This document shows positions 49,198 to 54,871 of a stretch of 64,000 nucleotides of DNA, piece by piece; the first letter of the stretch is position 1, and every line of letters begins with the position of its first letter. The notes beneath the pieces are model-generated. The model had not been told where the DNA came from. It searched no databases and saw only the letters and a list, made by a program, of their open reading frames with translations. The translations under genes and the position numbers were made by a program. Location of the stretch: assembly GCF_038562415.1 (NCBI RefSeq), contig NZ_JBCFBA010000001.1:496001-560000 (forward strand), in the 5' to 3' direction. Source of the DNA: Solidesulfovibrio sp. Its GTDB lineage: Bacteria; Desulfobacterota; Desulfovibrionia; Desulfovibrionales; Desulfovibrionaceae.

Positions 49198-49926
49198 TCA
49201 GCCCCACCACATCCGGCCGGCCCGCCACAGGCCGGAAAGGGTCAGGGGCCGGCCCCGGGCGCATTTGCGGGCCAGGTAGACGAAGAGATAGGCGGCGGCC
49301 AGGGCGTCGCTACGGGCATCATGGGCCGGAAAGACCGGCAGGCCGTAGCGGCGGCAAAGGGCTGGCAAGCCGTAGTCCAGGGACTGGGCATCGCCGCAGC
49401 CGCCGCTGGCCACCAGGCGCTTTTCCTCGAAAACCATGGCCAGGCGCAGGGTGTCGATGCAGGGCGCGGCCAGGTCGCCGCCCAGATGGCGACGGCTGGC
49501 GGCATGCAAAAAGCCCATGTCCAGATGCACGTGGTGGCCGACCATGACGGCCGGGCCCAGGAATTGGAGGAACCGGGCCAGGGCCTCGGATTCGGCCGGC
49601 GCGGCGGCCAGGCCCGAGGCGGTCAGGCGGTGGATGAGGGAACTGTCCCGGGGAACCTCGCCCTCGGGCCGCACCAGGGTGTAGAATGTCTCCCCGGGGC
49701 AGATGTCCAGCCCGCGAAGGCGCACCGCGCCGATGGAAACCAGGGCGTGGCGGCGCGGGTCGAAGCCGGTCAGCTCCGTATCCACGGCCACGAAGTCCAG
49801 TTCGCCCAGGCAGGCCCGAGTGTCGCGGCCTTGCTGCGCCCGGCGGTGGGCGGCCAGCGCGGGCGCCACCTCGGTTTGCCCCGAAGCGCCGAAAAAGCGG
49901 CGCAACCAGCCGGCCGGGCGGGTCAT
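49198..49926 (-). CDS. DnaQ-like 3'-5' exonuclease (DEDDh)
   Basis: The protein has 242 residues. The exonuclease core starts near residue 42: FVAVDTELTGFDPRRHALVSIGAVRL holds the DxE motif, VGHHVHLDMGFL the second acidic residue region, and HDARSDALA the final His and Asp. It resembles the epsilon subunit of polymerase III but has an N-terminal extension of about 40 residues (MTRPAGWLRRFFGAS). It overlaps the upstream CBS gene by 4 bases. Exonucleases of this type regularly sit beside DUF294 genes and acetate-type symporters; the reason is unknown. Confidence 0.85.
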   Translation of the reverse strand: MTRPAGWLRRFFGASGQTEVAPALAAHRRAQQGRDTRACLGELDFVAVDTELTGFDPRRHALVSIGAVRLRGLDICPGETFYTLVRPEGEVPRDSSLIHRLTASGLAAAPAESEALARFLQFLGPAVMVGHHVHLDMGFLHAASRRHLGGDLAAPCIDTLRLAMVFEEKRLVASGGCGDAQSLDYGLPALCRRYGLPVFPAHDARSDALAAAYLFVYLARKCARGRPLTLSGLWRAGRMWWG

Positions 49927-51806
49927 GGCACGCCTCCCTCGGCCCCAAGCCCGACGGACAGGGCCAGGCGCAGGCCTTCCAGGGCGGCGAAGGCGGCCTT
50001 GTAGGCATGGCGGCGGCGCGGGGAGATGGTTTCCGGCGCGAGCGCCACCTCCTCCCGGCCCGGGCCGTCGCCGGCGGCCAGCATTGCCAGCAGCCGCTCG
50101 CCCTCGAAAAAGCCGAAGGCCTCCACGGCCGCCCGGGCCGTTTCACCCGGCAGGAGGCCCCGCCGGGCCAGGGCCTCCAGGCGGCTGACGGTGCCGGTCG
50201 CGGTGATGCCGCCATGCAGCGCGGCGAGCCGGGCCAGGGCGGTCACGGGCCGCGAACCCCGGCCGGCCACGTCCAGGACGGACGCCGATCCGCCGTCGCG
50301 CTCCATGAGCCGGCCCTTATAAAGCCCCAGGGGGGCCGGACGGGCCACGGCCGCGCGCAGCATGGCGTCGAGCACCGGCGGCGGCGGGCTCGGCACGAGT
50401 CCCCGATCCGCCTCGGGCGCCTCGCGGCCGCAACCCGGCAGTTCCCGGGCGTCGAAGCCTTCCAGCGAGGCCTCGTGGTCCAGGGGGTCGCCGTCGGCGG
50501 CGAAGCCGGTGGGGTCGAACAGGGCCCGGGGATCGCCCAGGCAAAGCCCGGACCGCCCTCCCCGCAGGCCGCAACGGTCAAGCCCCTCGCCGAGCCTGGG
50601 CAACAGCGCCTGCAAATACGTCCGGGCCGCCCGGGCGATGACCGCATCGCCGCCGTCGCCCGGCACCACGGCCAGGGACAGGCCGGTTGCGGGCAGCATC
50701 TCCCGCCGCCCGGCCGCGCCCAGGGCCAGCCAGCGACACGGCGCGGGCGAGGGGCCGCAGCGTTTTTCCAGCAGGGCAAGCAGCCGGGCCAGCACCTGCT
50801 CGGCGAGCAGGGTCAGGATGTGGGACACGGCCCCGGCAGCCGCGCCGCGCGCGGCCAGGGCGGCGGCCAGGGGCCGGATGTTGCGGCAAAGCGCCTCCAG
50901 GTCGTCGGCGTCGTCGGCCCGGCGGATGGCCCGCAGCAAGGCCATGGGCGAGCGGCCATGGGCAAGCAGCAGGTCGCTGGCCGTGACCATGCCGGCCGGT
51001 TCGCCGTCGCGGGTCACGAGCAGGTGGCGGATGCCGGCCCCGGTCATGCGCAGGAGCCCCTCGAAACAGGCTGCCTCGGCGGCCATGGCGGCCACCGGCG
51101 CGGACATCAGCGTCTCGACGGTGGCGGAAAGCGGCAGCCCGGTGGCCACGGCCCGGCGCAGGTCGCGGTCGGTGACGATGCCGATGACCGCGCCGGAGGC
51201 CTCGCACACGAGCACCGAGCCGACCTGCCCGGCCTCCATGACCCGGGCGGCCTGGGGCAAGTCCGTGCCGCGCGGCACCCGCACCAGGCTGCGCGACGCC
51301 ACCTCGCCGGCAAGGCGGGTAAACAGGTAGTCGCCGTCGTCGGGCTCGGGGCAGGCGGCCAGGTTCGCGGCCCGGCTGTCGGCCCTGGCCTGGCCCAGGG
51401 CGTCGTGAAAATAGGCGGCCACTTCGGGGTGGCGGCGGCACACGGCGGCAAAGGCCTCCCCGGGCAGGCGCACGAGAAAGGTGTCCTCCAGGGCCGTGGC
51501 CTGGCAGGCACCGGGCACGGCGCCAGGCACGGCCCCCAGGCCGAAACACTCCCCCGGGCCGCGCAGGTCGTCCCGGGCGCGGCCGTCGTCCGGGCCGCGC
51601 AGGCGCAGGCCGCCGCGCTGCACGCAACACAGCCAGCCCCCGTCGCCGCCCTCCACGGGCACGGGTTCGTCCTTGAGGTACAGGGCCACCCGGCTCCCGG
51701 CGGCCAGGGCGGCCAGTTCCAGGGGCGGCAGGCGGTCGAAGGGCGGCACGCCGGCCAGGAAGGCCTGGACGGATTCGGGTTGGTGCGAAGGATCGCGGGC
51801 CTGCAT
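49923..51806 (-). CDS. cNMP-CBS-DUF294 protein with degenerate nucleotidyltransferase motif
   Basis: The protein has 627 residues. Residues 10-130 resemble a cyclic-nucleotide-binding domain (ECFGLGAVPG; FLVRLPGEAFAAVCRRHPEVA). Residues 165-285 are a CBS pair (GQVGSVLVCEASGAVIGIVTDRDL; IRHLLVTRDGEPAGMVTASDL). A DUF294 nucleotidyltransferase-like region and DUF294_C follow. In active members the motif is GSxGRxE...TDQDN; here it reads LGAAGRREMLPATGLSLAV, so the catalytic Asp pair is lost. The next gene upstream keeps that motif intact. The protein therefore looks like a sensor partner, not an enzyme. An operon with the symporter and exonuclease is likely. Confidence 0.85.
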   Translation of the reverse strand: MQARDPSHQPESVQAFLAGVPPFDRLPPLELAALAAGSRVALYLKDEPVPVEGGDGGWLCCVQRGGLRLRGPDDGRARDDLRGPGECFGLGAVPGAVPGACQATALEDTFLVRLPGEAFAAVCRRHPEVAAYFHDALGQARADSRAANLAACPEPDDGDYLFTRLAGEVASRSLVRVPRGTDLPQAARVMEAGQVGSVLVCEASGAVIGIVTDRDLRRAVATGLPLSATVETLMSAPVAAMAAEAACFEGLLRMTGAGIRHLLVTRDGEPAGMVTASDLLLAHGRSPMALLRAIRRADDADDLEALCRNIRPLAAALAARGAAAGAVSHILTLLAEQVLARLLALLEKRCGPSPAPCRWLALGAAGRREMLPATGLSLAVVPGDGGDAVIARAARTYLQALLPRLGEGLDRCGLRGGRSGLCLGDPRALFDPTGFAADGDPLDHEASLEGFDARELPGCGREAPEADRGLVPSPPPPVLDAMLRAAVARPAPLGLYKGRLMERDGGSASVLDVAGRGSRPVTALARLAALHGGITATGTVSRLEALARRGLLPGETARAAVEAFGFFEGERLLAMLAAGDGPGREEVALAPETISPRRRHAYKAAFAALEGLRLALSVGLGAEGGVP

Positions 51807-51821
51807 GGTTCCTCCGTCGGG

Positions 51822-52883
51822 TCAGGTCAGGTAGGCCAGACCGAAATGGTGTTCAAGGATGGCGCACAGCTCGGCCACGGCGCGAAACGCCCGGTGCAAG
51901 CCTTCCTTGGCGGCCAGGGGCAGGCGGTCCGGGTCCAGGCGGTTGCCCGGGGCCGCGCCCTCGCGCCAGGCCCGGGCCTGGCCGTCCAGGCGCACGGCCT
52001 GGACGGCGGCGAACGCGCGGACAAGGCGCTCGGCCAGTTCCCGGCCGACGCGCCCGCGACCGGCCAGGGCCTCTATGCGGGAGACTGTCCCTGTTTGCTG
52101 GAGACCGGCCTCCAGGGCCAGGGCCTTGACGCCGAGGACCAGGGGATAGACGGCCGCGCGCTTGCTGTCGCAGGGGGCGTGGCCAAAACCGAACAAGCCC
52201 AGGGACAGATGGCCGCCAAAGGGCGTGGACGGGGCGAAGCGGATGGCTTCCCGGGCCAGGCCGCGCACGAGCAGCGGCGCCTCGGCCGCCCGGCGCCGGA
52301 CATGGCCGGCCAGGGCCTGGGCCAGGCGCTCGTCGCCGGCCACGGCCCGACCGTCGGCCAGCAGCGAAACCAGCAGCACGCCGGCTTCGTCGGGGCGTTC
52401 GGCGGCGGCGTCCACGGCGGCGAGCCAACGCCCGAGGGGCTTTCGCCACGCGGGCGTTGCGGCCATGATGCCCTTGGGGCACGGCGGCAGGCCGCAGGCA
52501 TCGAGAATGTCGCGCAGCCGCCCGGCGAAAGTGGCGCATTCCCCGCCCTCCCCCTCCCCTTCGGGAACGATGAGCAGGTTGTCCTGGTCTGTGGCCAGAA
52601 ACTGCTCGCCGCGCCCCTGGCTGCCGAGGACCAGCAGGCACCAGCCGTCCGGGGGCCTGCCCGGCCCGTCCCGGGCCAGGGCGGCGGCGCGCGCGAGCAG
52701 CCTGTCGTTGAGCGCGGCGGCCAGCCGCCCCGTCTCCAGGGCGTCGCCCGCCCCGGCCGATGCGGCGACGAACGCCTGGATATCCTGGAAAAGCCCGGCC
52801 AACAGGCCTGGTTCGGCCACGACGTCCAGGGCAGCCGCCAATTCCGCCGCCTTCCCATGCATGGCCAACACCATTTCGCCCAT
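51822..52883 (-). CDS. DUF294 nucleotidyltransferase-like protein, sensor-less
   Basis: This protein of 353 residues lacks CBS and cNMP domains. The nucleotidyltransferase motif is intact: LVLGSQGRGEQFLATDQDNLLIVPEG, with Gly-Ser and the Asp-x-Asp pair seen in GlnD-like enzymes. The remainder is the helical DUF294_C region (FGHAPCDSKRAAVYPLVLGVKALALEAGL; TGTVSRIEALAGRGRVG). It is the complementary half of the downstream protein, whose motif is decayed. The two share the C-terminal pattern 'QTGTVSRIEALAxRG / ATGTVSRLEALARRG', so they are paralogues. The target could be nucleotidylation of a protein or a small molecule, unknown. Confidence 0.82.
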   Translation of the reverse strand: MGEMVLAMHGKAAELAAALDVVAEPGLLAGLFQDIQAFVAASAGAGDALETGRLAAALNDRLLARAAALARDGPGRPPDGWCLLVLGSQGRGEQFLATDQDNLLIVPEGEGEGGECATFAGRLRDILDACGLPPCPKGIMAATPAWRKPLGRWLAAVDAAAERPDEAGVLLVSLLADGRAVAGDERLAQALAGHVRRRAAEAPLLVRGLAREAIRFAPSTPFGGHLSLGLFGFGHAPCDSKRAAVYPLVLGVKALALEAGLQQTGTVSRIEALAGRGRVGRELAERLVRAFAAVQAVRLDGQARAWREGAAPGNRLDPDRLPLAAKEGLHRAFRAVAELCAILEHHFGLAYLT

Positions 52884-52904
52884 GCCTGCCCTCCTCCCCC
52901 TTCC

Positions 52905-53010
52905 AGGGGGTCCGGGGGGGATGATCCCCCCCGGTGGGGAAGTCCAGAAGGGGCAAAGCCCCTTTTGGCCCCCGGTGGGGTGGGTTCGGGAGGGGCGACG
53001 CCCCTCCCGA
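52905..53010. repeat. GC-rich multi-hairpin intergenic repeat, copy 3
   Basis: GGGGGTCCGG leads into G7-ATGAT-C7 (52914-52932). The second hairpin is centred on GGGGCAAAGCCCC (near 52950-52962). A third, CGGGAGGGGC / GCCCCTCCCG, lies at 52987-53010. It fills the gap between the DUF294 gene start and the symporter stop. It matches copy 1 (reversed) in two hairpins. Confidence 0.7.
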
Positions 53011-53015
53011 TATTT

Positions 53016-54563
53016 TCACTCGGCGCCGACGCCGAGGTAGTTGCGGATCTGCTGGGCTTCGTAGAGGGAGCGGGCCTTGGCGTCGGGCACGAGCACCGAG
53101 CCGAGCCAGCCGGCGGCAAAGGCGGCGGGCATGGAGATCAGCGCCGGGTTTTTCCAGGGGAAGATGGCGGCGGGATTGCCGAAGATATCCACCCAGACCG
53201 TGGGCGAGAGCAGGATCAGCCCGGCGGCGGTCACGGTGCCGGTGACGATGGCGGCCGTGGCGCCGAAGGTGCTGGTGCCCTTCCAGAGGATGGAGAGGAG
53301 CAGGGCCGGGAAGTTGGCGCTGGCGGCGATGGCGAAGGCCAGGCCGACCATGAAGGCCACGTTTTGGCCCTTGAAGGCCAGGCCGAGCAGCATGGCCACC
53401 ACGCCAAGGCCCAGCGTCGCCCGCTTGGCCACCTTCATTTCGTCCTCTTCCGAGGAGTTCCCGCTACGCCAGACATTGGCGTAGAGGTCGTGGGAAAGGG
53501 TGGTCGCGCCGGCCAAGGTCAGCCCGGCCACCACGGCCAGGATGGTGGCGAAGGCCACCGCCGCGATGAAGCCCAGAAACACCGTGCCGCCGGTCACCTC
53601 GGCCAGGAGCAGGGCGGCCATGTTGCCGCCGGCGTCCACCTTGGCCACCACGTCGCGGCCCACGAGCACCATGGCGGCGAAGCCGATGATGAAGGTGAGC
53701 ACGTAGAAGTAGCCGATGAGTCCCGTGGCGTAGAACACGGATTTGCGGGCGGCCTTGGCGTCGGGCACGGTGTAGAAGCGCATGAGGATGTGCGGCAGGC
53801 CGGCCGTGCCGAACATCAGCGCGATGCCCAGGGACACGGCGTCCAGGGGGTTGGCCACGAGCCCCCCGGGGTTGAGCACTTTTTCGCCGTAGGTCGCGGC
53901 GGCGGCGTTGAAAAGCCCCACCACGTTGAAGCCGAACTTGGACAGGGCCATGCCCACCATGACCGTGGCCCCGGCGAGCAGGAGCACGGCCTTGATGATC
54001 TGCACCCAGGTGGTGGCCAGCATGCCGCCGAAGAGCACGTAGGCGATCATGACCGCGCCGACGAGGATGATGGCCGTTTCGTAGGGCAGCCCGAACATCA
54101 TCTTGATCAGCGCCCCGGAGCCCACCATCTGGGCGATGAGGTAGAAGCAGACCGTCAAAAGCGAGCCCACCGAGGCGGCGATGCGGATGGGCTTTTGCGA
54201 CAGGCGGTAGGCCACCACGTCGGCGAAGGTGTACTTGCCGAGGTTGCGCAGGGGCTCGGCGATGAGGAACATGATGACCGGCCAGCCGACGAGGAAGCCG
54301 ATGGAATAGATGAGCCCGTCGTAGCCCTTGAGCGACACCAGGCCGGCGATGCCCAGAAACGAGGCGGCGGACATGTAGTCGCCGGCCAGGGCCAGGCCGT
54401 TTTGCCAGCCCGTGACCGAACGGCCGGCGGCGTAGAACTGGGAGGCGCCCCGGCTTTTCTTGGCCGCGAAATAGGTGATGGCCAGAGTGCCGGCGATGAA
54501 AAAGAAAAAGAAGATGATGGACGTGGCGTTGGGTTGGCCGATGGTGGTGGCGAAGGTGTTCAT
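53016..54563 (-). CDS. actP: Cation/acetate symporter of the SSS family
   Basis: This 515-residue Na+/solute symporter has about 13 hydrophobic segments. Family features are [33 protein letters not shown], then [32 protein letters not shown] and a Ser/Thr-rich sodium site region [14 protein letters not shown]. These match ActP, which takes up acetate and other short-chain acids. Its ATG overlaps the stop of the DUF485 gene (ATGA), the usual partner. Acetate is relevant for a sulfate reducer, though the exact substrate is inferred. Confidence 0.92.
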
Positions 54564-54871
54564 CCCCGGTTCTCCCGCATGGCGTGTTTGATGTTGTCGA
54601 CGGCGGTGTCGTAGTCGTCGTTGGCCCAGCGCACGTAGATGCCCGTGGCCAGCCAGGACACGACGATGACGCCAAGCCCGATGGGAATGCCCACGGTCAT
54701 GTGCTCGCCGATGCGGGTGGCGAACAGGTCCGGCCGAAAGGCCAGGACGGCGATGAAGCCGTAATAGACGGCCAGCATGAAGGCGGTCAGCGTCAGGGAG
54801 ACGCCCCAGCGTTTGCGCACGAGCTGGGAAAACAGCCGGGAGTGGGTCGGGTCGGCCGTGGACGTTGGCAT
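54560..54871 (-). CDS. DUF485 membrane protein
   Basis: This 103-residue protein has two membrane helices ([20 protein letters not shown] and [19 protein letters not shown]) and the C-terminal [17 protein letters not shown] typical of DUF485, the YjcH family. It is encoded just before ActP in many bacteria and may assist the symporter. It has AAAGGAG upstream of ATG and heads the leftward cluster symporter-DUF294-CBS-exonuclease. Confidence 0.92.

What the first reader, a model, noticed from the sequence alone, without database searches (positions are those of the whole stretch)
49198..54871. DUF294 enzyme divided into a sensor half with a dead site and a catalytic half, beside an acetate symporter and an exonuclease
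Seen: two adjacent paralogues. The first (49923-51806) has cNMP-like and CBS domains but its nucleotidyltransferase motif is decayed (TGLSLAV in place of TDQDNL). The second (51822-52883) has no sensor domains but an intact GSQGRGE...TDQDN motif. Known: DUF485-ActP genes are often linked to a CBS-DUF294 protein and a DnaQ-like exonuclease. Inferred: the pair acts as a regulator/enzyme complex that modifies the symporter or a nucleotide signal, with the exonuclease as the possible removing activity.
Basis: partly seen in the sequence, partly recalled or inferred. Interest (0 to 1): 0.72.

Follow-up and report, generated by a model that had tools for sequence, protein, structure and literature searches.

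The report
Enzyme with a catalytically dead sensor twin
Next to an acetate-type transporter, this bacterium keeps two sister proteins, one an intact nucleotide-attaching enzyme stripped of its sensors and the other a sensor-bearing copy with a ruined active site; the same kind of pair appears to have arisen several separate times, which makes an almost unstudied enzyme family testable.

Summary
On the minus strand lie DUF485, an ActP-type symporter, a sensorless DUF294 enzyme with intact GSQGRGE...TDQDN (A), a cNMP-like/CBS/DUF294 protein reading GAAGRRE...TGLSL (B), and a DEDDh exonuclease. It is not one enzyme split in two: A and B are old paralogues. Relatives of A lie beside DUF485-ActP; relatives of B mostly lie beside a VC_2705 symporter and an exonuclease. 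Here A lacks sensors and B lacks catalysis; one genus (L077) has the same operon with both still full length. In the window's genus B is dead in 13 of 13 readable copies. Among 145 loci examined (not a random sample), 36 cNMP-bearing copies have lost the Asp pair; 35 lie within 3.3 kb of a live copy, and the 36th sits on an 8.2 kb contig. All 36 keep the motif's G, R and E. Trees need seven changes. The dead domain evolves under constraint and is predicted to keep a GlnE-like fold. Best reading: B is a pseudoenzyme sensor subunit acting on A. Binding, target and chemistry are untested.

The parts
54560..54871 (-). DUF485 small membrane protein, first gene of the cluster
   Evidence: PF04341 105.5 bits; overlaps ActP by 4 bases
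53016..54563 (-). ActP-type sodium/solute symporter (probable acetate/monocarboxylate symporter)
   Evidence: PF00474 353.1 bits; best NCBIfam match ActP NF006903 737.6 bits, just under its cut-off of 750
52884..53015 (-). 132-base gap between ActP and the enzyme with strong hairpins
   Evidence: RNA fold -88.9 kcal/mol, z -4.22; includes a palindrome present 35 times in the genome
51822..52883 (-). Protein A: sensorless, intact DUF294 nucleotidyltransferase (DUF294 + DUF294_C), 353 aa
   Evidence: PF03445 and PF10335 over cut-off; AlphaFold mean pLDDT 93.1; nearest solved folds GlnE and DrrA adenylyltransferase domains
52578..52625 (-). Intact motif GSQGRGEQFLATDQDN of protein A
   Evidence: G87, R91, E93, D99, Q100, D101 and the later D177 invariant in 65 aligned live sequences
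49923..51806 (-). Protein B: cNMP-like domain + CBS pair + catalytically dead DUF294 + DUF294_C, 627 aa
   Evidence: AlphaFold mean pLDDT 83.9
51429..51674 (-). cNMP-like domain of protein B
   Evidence: PF00027 25.9 bits, below cut-off 27.5
50952..51308 (-). CBS pair of protein B
   Evidence: PF00571, two stretches, best at residues 167-221; solved CBS pairs align at Z 15-18 over about 160-287
50667..50720 (-). Decayed motif GAAGRREMLPATGLSLAV of protein B (Ser and both Asp of the DxD lost; G, R, E kept)
49959..50375 (-). DUF294_C of protein B
   Evidence: PF10335 77.3 bits
49198..49926 (-). DEDDh-type 3'-5' exonuclease, start overlapping the end of protein B by 4 bases
   Evidence: PF00929 91.1 bits; DTE, LDMG and HDARSD present

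Best explanation
Protein A is a GlnE-like nucleotidyltransferase whose built-in sensors were lost. Protein B is its paralogue turned into a pseudoenzyme: it keeps the sensor domains and a folded, conserved pseudo-active domain but cannot bind Mg-NTP in the usual way. The most likely working is that B, on sensing adenine nucleotides or another ligand through its CBS and cNMP-like domains, binds A through the paired DUF294/DUF294_C domains and switches in trans the nucleotidylation of a target in acetate uptake (DUF485/ActP or a protein acting with it). Shown here by sequence, tree and model: paralogy, loss of the Asp pair, predicted fold and sequence constraint, pairing with a live copy, more than one origin. 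Inferred: binding of A and B, the ligand, the target, the nucleotide, the order of events.
For: Pairing: 35 of 36 dead cNMP-bearing copies have a live DUF294 copy in the same fetched stretch, at most 3.3 kb away; the 36th (L081) is on an 8.2 kb contig and its genome has a live copy beside ActP on another contig (L124); 0 of 40 multi-copy loci have only dead copies. Selective loss: in the 36 dead copies Ser is kept in 2, first Asp in 0, second Asp in 10, but Gly, Arg and Glu in 36 each and the third Asp in 33; in 149 live copies the third Asp, Gly, Arg and Glu are kept in 149 and Ser in 148. Constraint: pairwise dN/dS of the dead domain 0.09-0.40 in 10 within-genus pairs, against 0.23-0.57 for the live domain. 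Fold: residues 285-618 of the B model align to the GlnE AR domain at Z 23.1 and to the AT domain at Z 21.7. Complementary loss: no cNMP and no CBS match in A in 13 of 13 genus copies, no cNMP match in 7 of 7 g10 copies and in the 3 g38 copies not cut by a contig end. L077 has the same gene order with both copies full length. Full-length single proteins carry sensor and enzyme in one chain, so the two functions belong together.
Against: Some intact copies lack sensors with no dead partner in the stretch: L088, L143, L144, L145, L148 and the sensorless g5 copies; L125-L127 and L129-L131 have CBS but no cNMP match. L078 has a dead B near an A that still has its sensors. The independent-pairs test of 'paired' against 'dead' has too few informative pairs (2-4 of 10, none contrary; p 0.125-0.5). 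L165 is a sensorless copy with a decayed motif beside a VC_2705-type symporter, with no second copy in the stretch. Five of 40 multi-copy loci have no dead copy (L077, L080, L149, L150, L157). The one studied full-length relative, Pflu5625, showed no deletion phenotype (PMC5715377, passages).
Confidence: 0.55

Rival explanations
1. B is a stand-alone ligand-binding adaptor whose real partner is the exonuclease; it and A share an operon because both serve acetate metabolism but they do not touch.
For: An exonuclease gene is beside 35 of 36 dead cNMP-bearing copies and beside 23 of 27 live copies that sit next to a VC_2705 symporter; it overlaps B by 4 bases here. None of 21 intact copies alone in their stretch and next to ActP has one beside it.
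Against: Does not explain why dead sensor copies were seen only where a live DUF294 copy is near, nor why A lacks sensors in the same operons in g1, g10 and g38. In L158 the exonuclease is beside the live copy.
Confidence: 0.2
2. B is a decaying relic: after the two loci joined, B's enzyme domain was redundant and is drifting away.
For: Long branch of B on the DUF294 trees (1.6-1.8 changes per column for g1 and g10, 1.5-1.8) and no DUF294_C match left in g10 and g38.
Against: Open frame in the 12 genus copies read in full, dN/dS 0.09-0.40, G/R/E kept in 36 of 36 and third Asp in 33 of 36 dead copies, and a GlnE-like predicted fold.
Confidence: 0.1
3. B has a changed chemistry rather than none, for example removing the group that A adds, as the two related domains of GlnE do opposite jobs.
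For: Best structural match of B is the adenylyl-removing domain of GlnE (Z 23.1 v 21.7 for the adenylating one, not a clear gap); third Asp kept in 33 of 36.
Against: No dead copy has both Asp of the pair that all live copies keep, and the replacing residues differ between lineages (the pair defines live and dead). That both GlnE domains need their Asp pairs is recalled, not tested.
Confidence: 0.08
4. A makes or consumes a small nucleotide signal that B's CBS or cNMP-like domain reads; no protein is modified.
For: CBS pairs are solved with adenine nucleotides in relatives such as AcuB (entry titles).
Against: The whole-length fold match of A is to protein-adenylylating enzymes GlnE and DrrA.
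Confidence: 0.07

Closest known systems
Full-length cNMP-CBS-DUF294-type proteins (e.g. Pflu5625 of Pseudomonas fluorescens, CrbS/R regulon)
   Same: Described as cAMP-binding, CBS and nucleotidyltransferase domains in one protein, lowered in a crbS mutant together with ActP and its operon partner Pflu1813 (PMC5715377, passages read)
   Different: There one protein; here sensor and active site sit on two paralogous proteins, the sensor one dead. The sequence of Pflu5625 was not compared here
GlnE, glutamine synthetase adenylyltransferase
   Same: Predicted fold of both A and B; two homologous nucleotidyltransferase units that act together
   Different: GlnE is one chain with two active domains (recalled); here two chains, one unit dead, with CBS and cNMP-like sensors; A has no sequence match to solved structures
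DrrA adenylyltransferase domain (structure hit only)
   Same: Fold over nearly the whole length of A, TM 0.67
   Different: Known only as a name in the hit lists here; biology not compared
Pseudoenzyme-enzyme pairs in general (recalled)
   Same: A dead paralogue that may regulate a live one
   Different: No held paper linking this idea to DUF294 was found

Membership tests
DUF294 / DUF294_C (PF03445, PF10335) | Curated Pfam scores reached | tested here: met
   A: 121.5 and 98.8 bits; B: 55.4 and 77.3 bits; cut-offs 21 and 22.5
Active DUF294 nucleotidyltransferase | GS..R.E....[TSA]DQD motif plus later Asp: protein A | tested here: met
   GSQGRGEQFLATDQDN and ADGR; the G, R, E and three Asp invariant in 65 aligned live sequences
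Active DUF294 nucleotidyltransferase | Same motif: protein B | tested here: not met
   GAAGRREMLPATGLSL; Ser and both Asp lost, later Asp kept
GlnE-like protein adenylyltransferase | Fold | tested here: met
   Predicted models only. A: E 1.1e-6 (1v4a), 3.3e-6 (3k7d_A); B: Z 23.1 and 21.7
GlnE-like protein adenylyltransferase | Transfer of AMP to a protein | not testable with these tools
   needs enzyme assay
Cyclic nucleotide-binding domain | Pfam cut-off | tested here: not met
   25.9 v 27.5 bits in B; the Arg expected in the phosphate-binding loop (consensus recalled) is not evident in the alignment. Some other dead copies pass the cut-off (L154, L158, L161)
CBS pair | Two CBS motifs and fold | tested here: met
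   60.4 bits, two stretches; Z up to 18.1
ActP acetate symporter | NCBIfam cut-off | tested here: not met
   737.6 v 750 bits for NF006903, 657.7 v 1099.25 for TIGR02711; SSF superfamily met. Acetate transport is therefore inferred from the near-miss and from DUF485
DEDDh exonuclease | RNase_T match and D-E-D-H-D residues | tested here: met
   91.1 bits; DTE, LDMG, HDARSD

The most novel reading that the evidence does not exclude
DUF294 proteins are converted again and again into pseudoenzyme sensor subunits: when a second, active DUF294 copy is close by, the sensor-bearing copy loses Mg-NTP binding but keeps its fold, its sensor and its exonuclease, giving a two-protein, trans-sensed protein nucleotidyltransferase that controls acetate-type symporters. 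Within the family Desulfovibrionaceae the loss falls on copies that do not sit beside a VC_2705 symporter, while all 27 copies found beside one are live, which points to the symporter as what a live copy serves.
Probability: 0.45. Interest if true: 0.75.

Novelty: new variant of a known kind. Interest (0 to 1): 0.6.

Why it matters
DUF294 proteins are common beside acetate-type symporters in the loci seen here, yet no held paper found shows what they do: a whole-word search for DUF294 listed 2 papers, neither on this by title, and the one deletion reported had no phenotype (PMC5715377, passages). Lineages in which an enzyme without sensors stands beside a sensor without chemistry give clean tests. 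The pattern of loss names a candidate target (the cognate symporter) and suggests that the exonuclease goes with the sensor protein. If right, acetate uptake in sulfate reducers would be set by protein nucleotidylation through a two-protein switch.

Tried and rejected
Fission of one gene: rejected, because the genus's A and B fall in different clades on the DUF294 trees.

One origin of all dead copies in Desulfovibrionaceae: rejected on the 51-row sensor-region tree (AU p 0.017). On that tree g1+g41 (p 0.061) and g1+g10+g38 (p 0.086) as one clade were not rejected, nor was g1+g41 on the DUF294 tree (p 0.289); on the 58-row tree with outgroups g1+g41 was rejected (p 0.024). Two further tests did not finish and were not repeated on that tree. 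The groups were named after trees had been seen, which makes these p values lenient.

Place of the genus's B: next to the B of L077 (95/97) on the 58-row tree, but on the 51-row tree it branched outside live B plus L077 (88/95, not starred), and the 92-row quick tree left it open. All three put it on the B side.

'Paired' against 'dead' by independent pairs: no power. The 145-locus count is not a random sample. In the family I took most matches listed; in the phylum I took the tandem pairs that I could see in a listing cut at 150 rows, 20 single-match genomes chosen by hand for long frames, and some others. Dropped before the count: L001-L036, L046, L047, L117-L123, L147, L152, L153, L193 (repeats of the same genomes, contig-split pieces, stubs), so the split dead copy of G010 is not among the 36. 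'Single' means alone in the fetched stretch, not in the genome.

A first count of VC_2705-type neighbours used the score against an ActP profile and gave 27 cNMP-bearing live copies; on recount two of these, L157 and L162, are not shown to be of that family (L157 scores 287.6, under the 320.75 cut-off), leaving 25 cNMP-bearing and 2 others, all in Desulfovibrionaceae and all live.

Exonuclease as remover of A's modification: weakened, not excluded. The phosphate-loop Arg consensus and the roles of GlnE residues are recalled. The structure list is dominated by CBS chains; nothing is concluded from absences in it. Cache-PAS-CBS-DUF294 proteins were first suspected of being symporter fusions; Pfam showed Cache and PAS, not SSF. 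One search (DUF294 with acetate, word start) listed five papers; I opened none of them. Aravind and Koonin 1999 could not be read.
Full report
WHAT IS THERE. The cluster on the minus strand is DUF485 (54560-54871), ActP-type symporter (53016-54563), A (51822-52883), B (49923-51806) and a DEDDh exonuclease (49198-49926). DUF485/ActP and B/exonuclease overlap by 4 bases, A and B are 15 bases apart, and 132 bases separate ActP from A. A has DUF294 and DUF294_C only; B has a cNMP-like domain (below cut-off), a CBS pair, DUF294 and DUF294_C. The rest of the genome has no further DUF294_C match at E 0.001; two weak DUF294 matches lie elsewhere, one in a 1004-aa frame just over the cut-off and one below it, not identified further.

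THE MOTIF. Aligned columns: A GSQGRGEQFLATDQDN, B GAAGRREMLPATGLSL. Six records found by name share contig lengths with genomes of this genus; five are titled Solidesulfovibrio and one Desulfovibrio sp. In the genus 13 of 14 genomes have both copies; the Asp pair is intact in 13 of 13 short copies and lost in 13 of 13 readable long copies. B is unlikely to be a relic: pairwise dN/dS over 10 within-genus pairs is 0.09-0.40 for its dead domain and 0.15-0.38 for its DUF294_C, against 0.23-0.57 and 0.09-0.57 for the same parts of A, 0.08-0.25 for the CBS pair, 0.15-0.61 for the cNMP-like domain and 0.05-0.11 for ActP (own Nei-Gojobori script, pairs not independent).

TWO PARALOGUES, NOT TWO HALVES. 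In Desulfovibrionaceae there are two main kinds of locus. A copies lie beside DUF485-ActP with no exonuclease beside them; B copies mostly lie beside a different, about 600-aa symporter and an exonuclease. That symporter is of the VC_2705 family (TIGR03648, 855 bits in L080). It was found in 30 of 199 family genomes; in 27 of these a DUF294_C match lies next to it on the same contig, and in 3 the two are on different contigs (comparison by hand). These 27 copies are all live; 25 have a cNMP match and 23 an exonuclease beside them. The symporter was not found at E 1e-150 in any of the 14 genomes of the window's genus; in the g10, g38 and g24 genomes tested only matches of 173-181 bits were seen, or none, the level of their ActP genes. 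Genomes such as G118, G029 and G100 have both loci, both live. On the DUF294+DUF294_C tree the genus's A copies fall with other ActP-linked copies (100/99) and its B copies with B copies (98/95). On trees of the cNMP+CBS part, which leave out the decayed columns, the genus's B is on the B side in all three. In the 58-row one it lies inside live B copies (98/98), next to the B of L077 (95/97); the 51-row tree put it outside them (88/95).

THE INTERMEDIATE. L077 (g24) has DUF485-ActP-A-B-exonuclease in the same order as the window, with A and B both full length and both with an Asp pair, B already reading GGEGRGERNLASDQDN. The likely history is that B with its exonuclease came to lie in the A operon, without its own symporter, then lost catalysis while A lost its sensors. 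The order of these steps is inferred.

REPETITION. Dead, sensor-bearing copies also occur in g10, g38 and g41 of the same family and in other families of the phylum: L154-L156, L158, L159/L160/L186/L187/L188, L161. In L154-L156 the order is DUF485-ActP-dead-exonuclease-live. In L159 an acetate-CoA ligase lies between the dead and live copies, and L161 has regulators whose best NCBIfam matches are AtoS and AtoC, below cut-off. The L078 copy reads GEEGRVEASLGTEQET (both Asp to Glu) and may keep some activity. On the careful sensor-region tree of 58 rows the dead state needs 7 changes, and well-supported branches alone force 7; on a quick tree of 92 rows it needs 7, and well-supported branches force 5. 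Within Desulfovibrionaceae alone it needs 3. Rows were thinned by hand. The count cannot itself tell loss from gain; loss is the natural reading because live copies are widespread and keep the same residues.

COUNTS. In 145 loci with 186 DUF294 proteins: 105 loci with one copy (103 live, 2 dead: L081, on an 8.2 kb contig, whose genome has a live copy beside ActP on another contig (L124), and L165) and 40 with two or more (46 live, 35 dead); 35 of these 40 have a dead copy and none has only dead copies. Of cNMP-bearing proteins, 64 of 65 single ones are live and 35 of 54 in multi-copy loci are dead. The dead copy is at most 3.3 kb from the live one in all 35. 20 of 20 single-match phylum genomes picked by hand are live, two of them of the Cache-PAS type. 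In the 36 dead cNMP-bearing copies Gly, Arg and Glu of the motif are kept in 36, the third Asp in 33, Ser in 2, first Asp in 0, second Asp in 10, both in 0; in 149 live copies Gly, Arg, Glu and all three Asp are kept in 149 and Ser in 148 (live and dead were defined by the Asp pair). An exonuclease is beside 35 of 36 dead copies, L158 being the exception; an ActP-adjacent single live copy has none beside it in 21 of 21. These rows are related and not a random sample.

AGAINST THE SIMPLE STORY. Live copies without sensors also occur with no dead partner in the stretch (L088, L143-L145, L148; sensorless g5 copies L050-L065; CBS-only copies L125-L127, L129-L131). L078 has a dead B near an A that keeps its sensors. 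Five of 40 multi-copy loci have no dead copy. Live full-length copies without a VC_2705 symporter beside them exist in this family too: L077, L066, and L074-L076 and L110, where an intact copy, an exonuclease, DUF485 and ActP form one cluster; they are common outside it. So the link between lacking that symporter and catalytic death runs one way only: no copy beside the symporter is dead in this family, but not every copy without it is. L165 is sensorless, decayed and beside a VC_2705-type symporter in another family.

STRUCTURE. A is modelled with mean pLDDT 93.1. Its four Foldseek matches at E 0.001 or better are DrrA (TM 0.67) and the two halves of GlnE. B is modelled with mean pLDDT 83.9; residues 285-618 align to the GlnE AR domain (Z 23.1, rmsd 3.5, 299 residues), the AT domain (Z 21.7) and DrrA (Z 21.4). 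So B is predicted to keep the fold of an adenylyltransferase with an emptied active site. CBS pairs of AcuB structures with AMP, ADP and ATP are among the matches of B's CBS pair, which makes adenine nucleotides a fair guess for the ligand. The phosphate-loop Arg expected of a cyclic nucleotide site is not evident in the cNMP-like domain (consensus recalled).

MECHANISM. Most likely B is the sensor subunit and A the catalytic subunit of one protein nucleotidyltransferase aimed at acetate uptake. The steps shown are the loss of the Asp pair, conservation, pairing and more than one origin. The steps inferred are A-B binding through the paired homologous domains, ligand control, and the target. 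The exonuclease goes with B; what it cuts is unknown.

LITERATURE. DUF294 as a whole word: 2 papers, neither on acetate by title; only the listing was seen. ActP with nucleotidyltransferase, exonuclease and acetate, and pseudoenzyme with nucleotidyltransferase and CBS domain: none. CrbR with nucleotidyltransferase and acetate, CBS with nucleotidyltransferase domain, cAMP-binding and acetate, and DUF485 with symporter and nucleotidyltransferase: one paper, PMC5715377. Of it I read passages only: Pflu5625, ActP and Pflu1813 rise on acetate and fall in a crbS mutant, and the pflu5625 deletion had no phenotype. The held library lacks most subscription papers.

VERDICT. The larger finding is that it looks like one case of a repeated conversion of a sensor-enzyme into a pseudoenzyme partner. 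Novelty: a new variant of a known kind.

Noticed in passing
window 52916-52930 (and 34 other places in the genome): Palindrome GGGGGATCATCCCCC occurs 35 times in the 5.07 Mb genome, none for the reversed control; it sits among strong hairpins in the ActP-A gap and looks like an interspersed REP-like element.
   Followed up: partly
L165:6678-7913: Sensorless DUF294 protein with decayed motif GGAGRAEGTIAGECDA beside a VC_2705-type symporter; its genome has other DUF294_C copies. Does not fit the dead-sensor rule.
   Followed up: partly
L084:3802-6825, L184:3408-6356, L185:3365-6382: About 1000-aa proteins with Cache, PAS, CBS and DUF294 domains: DUF294 enzymes with what look like outward-facing sensors.
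   Followed up: no
L050-L065 (g5): Stand-alone DUF294-DUF294_C enzyme with intact motif (e.g. GSGGRDEQVIGSDQDN) beside a divergent SSF symporter, with no DUF485, sensor or exonuclease match in the stretch.
   Followed up: partly
L146:8677-9357: A separate CBS-pair protein just downstream of the symporter in a locus with a sensorless intact DUF294 enzyme: a possible other way to supply the sensor in trans.
   Followed up: no
L074-L076, L110 (g40 and a relative): Intact full-length DUF294 protein followed by an exonuclease, DUF485 and ActP in one cluster, a different block order from the window.
   Followed up: no
L080:11236-11487: Small 83-aa membrane-like ORF just before the VC_2705-type symporter, perhaps its small subunit (not searched against families).
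   Followed up: no
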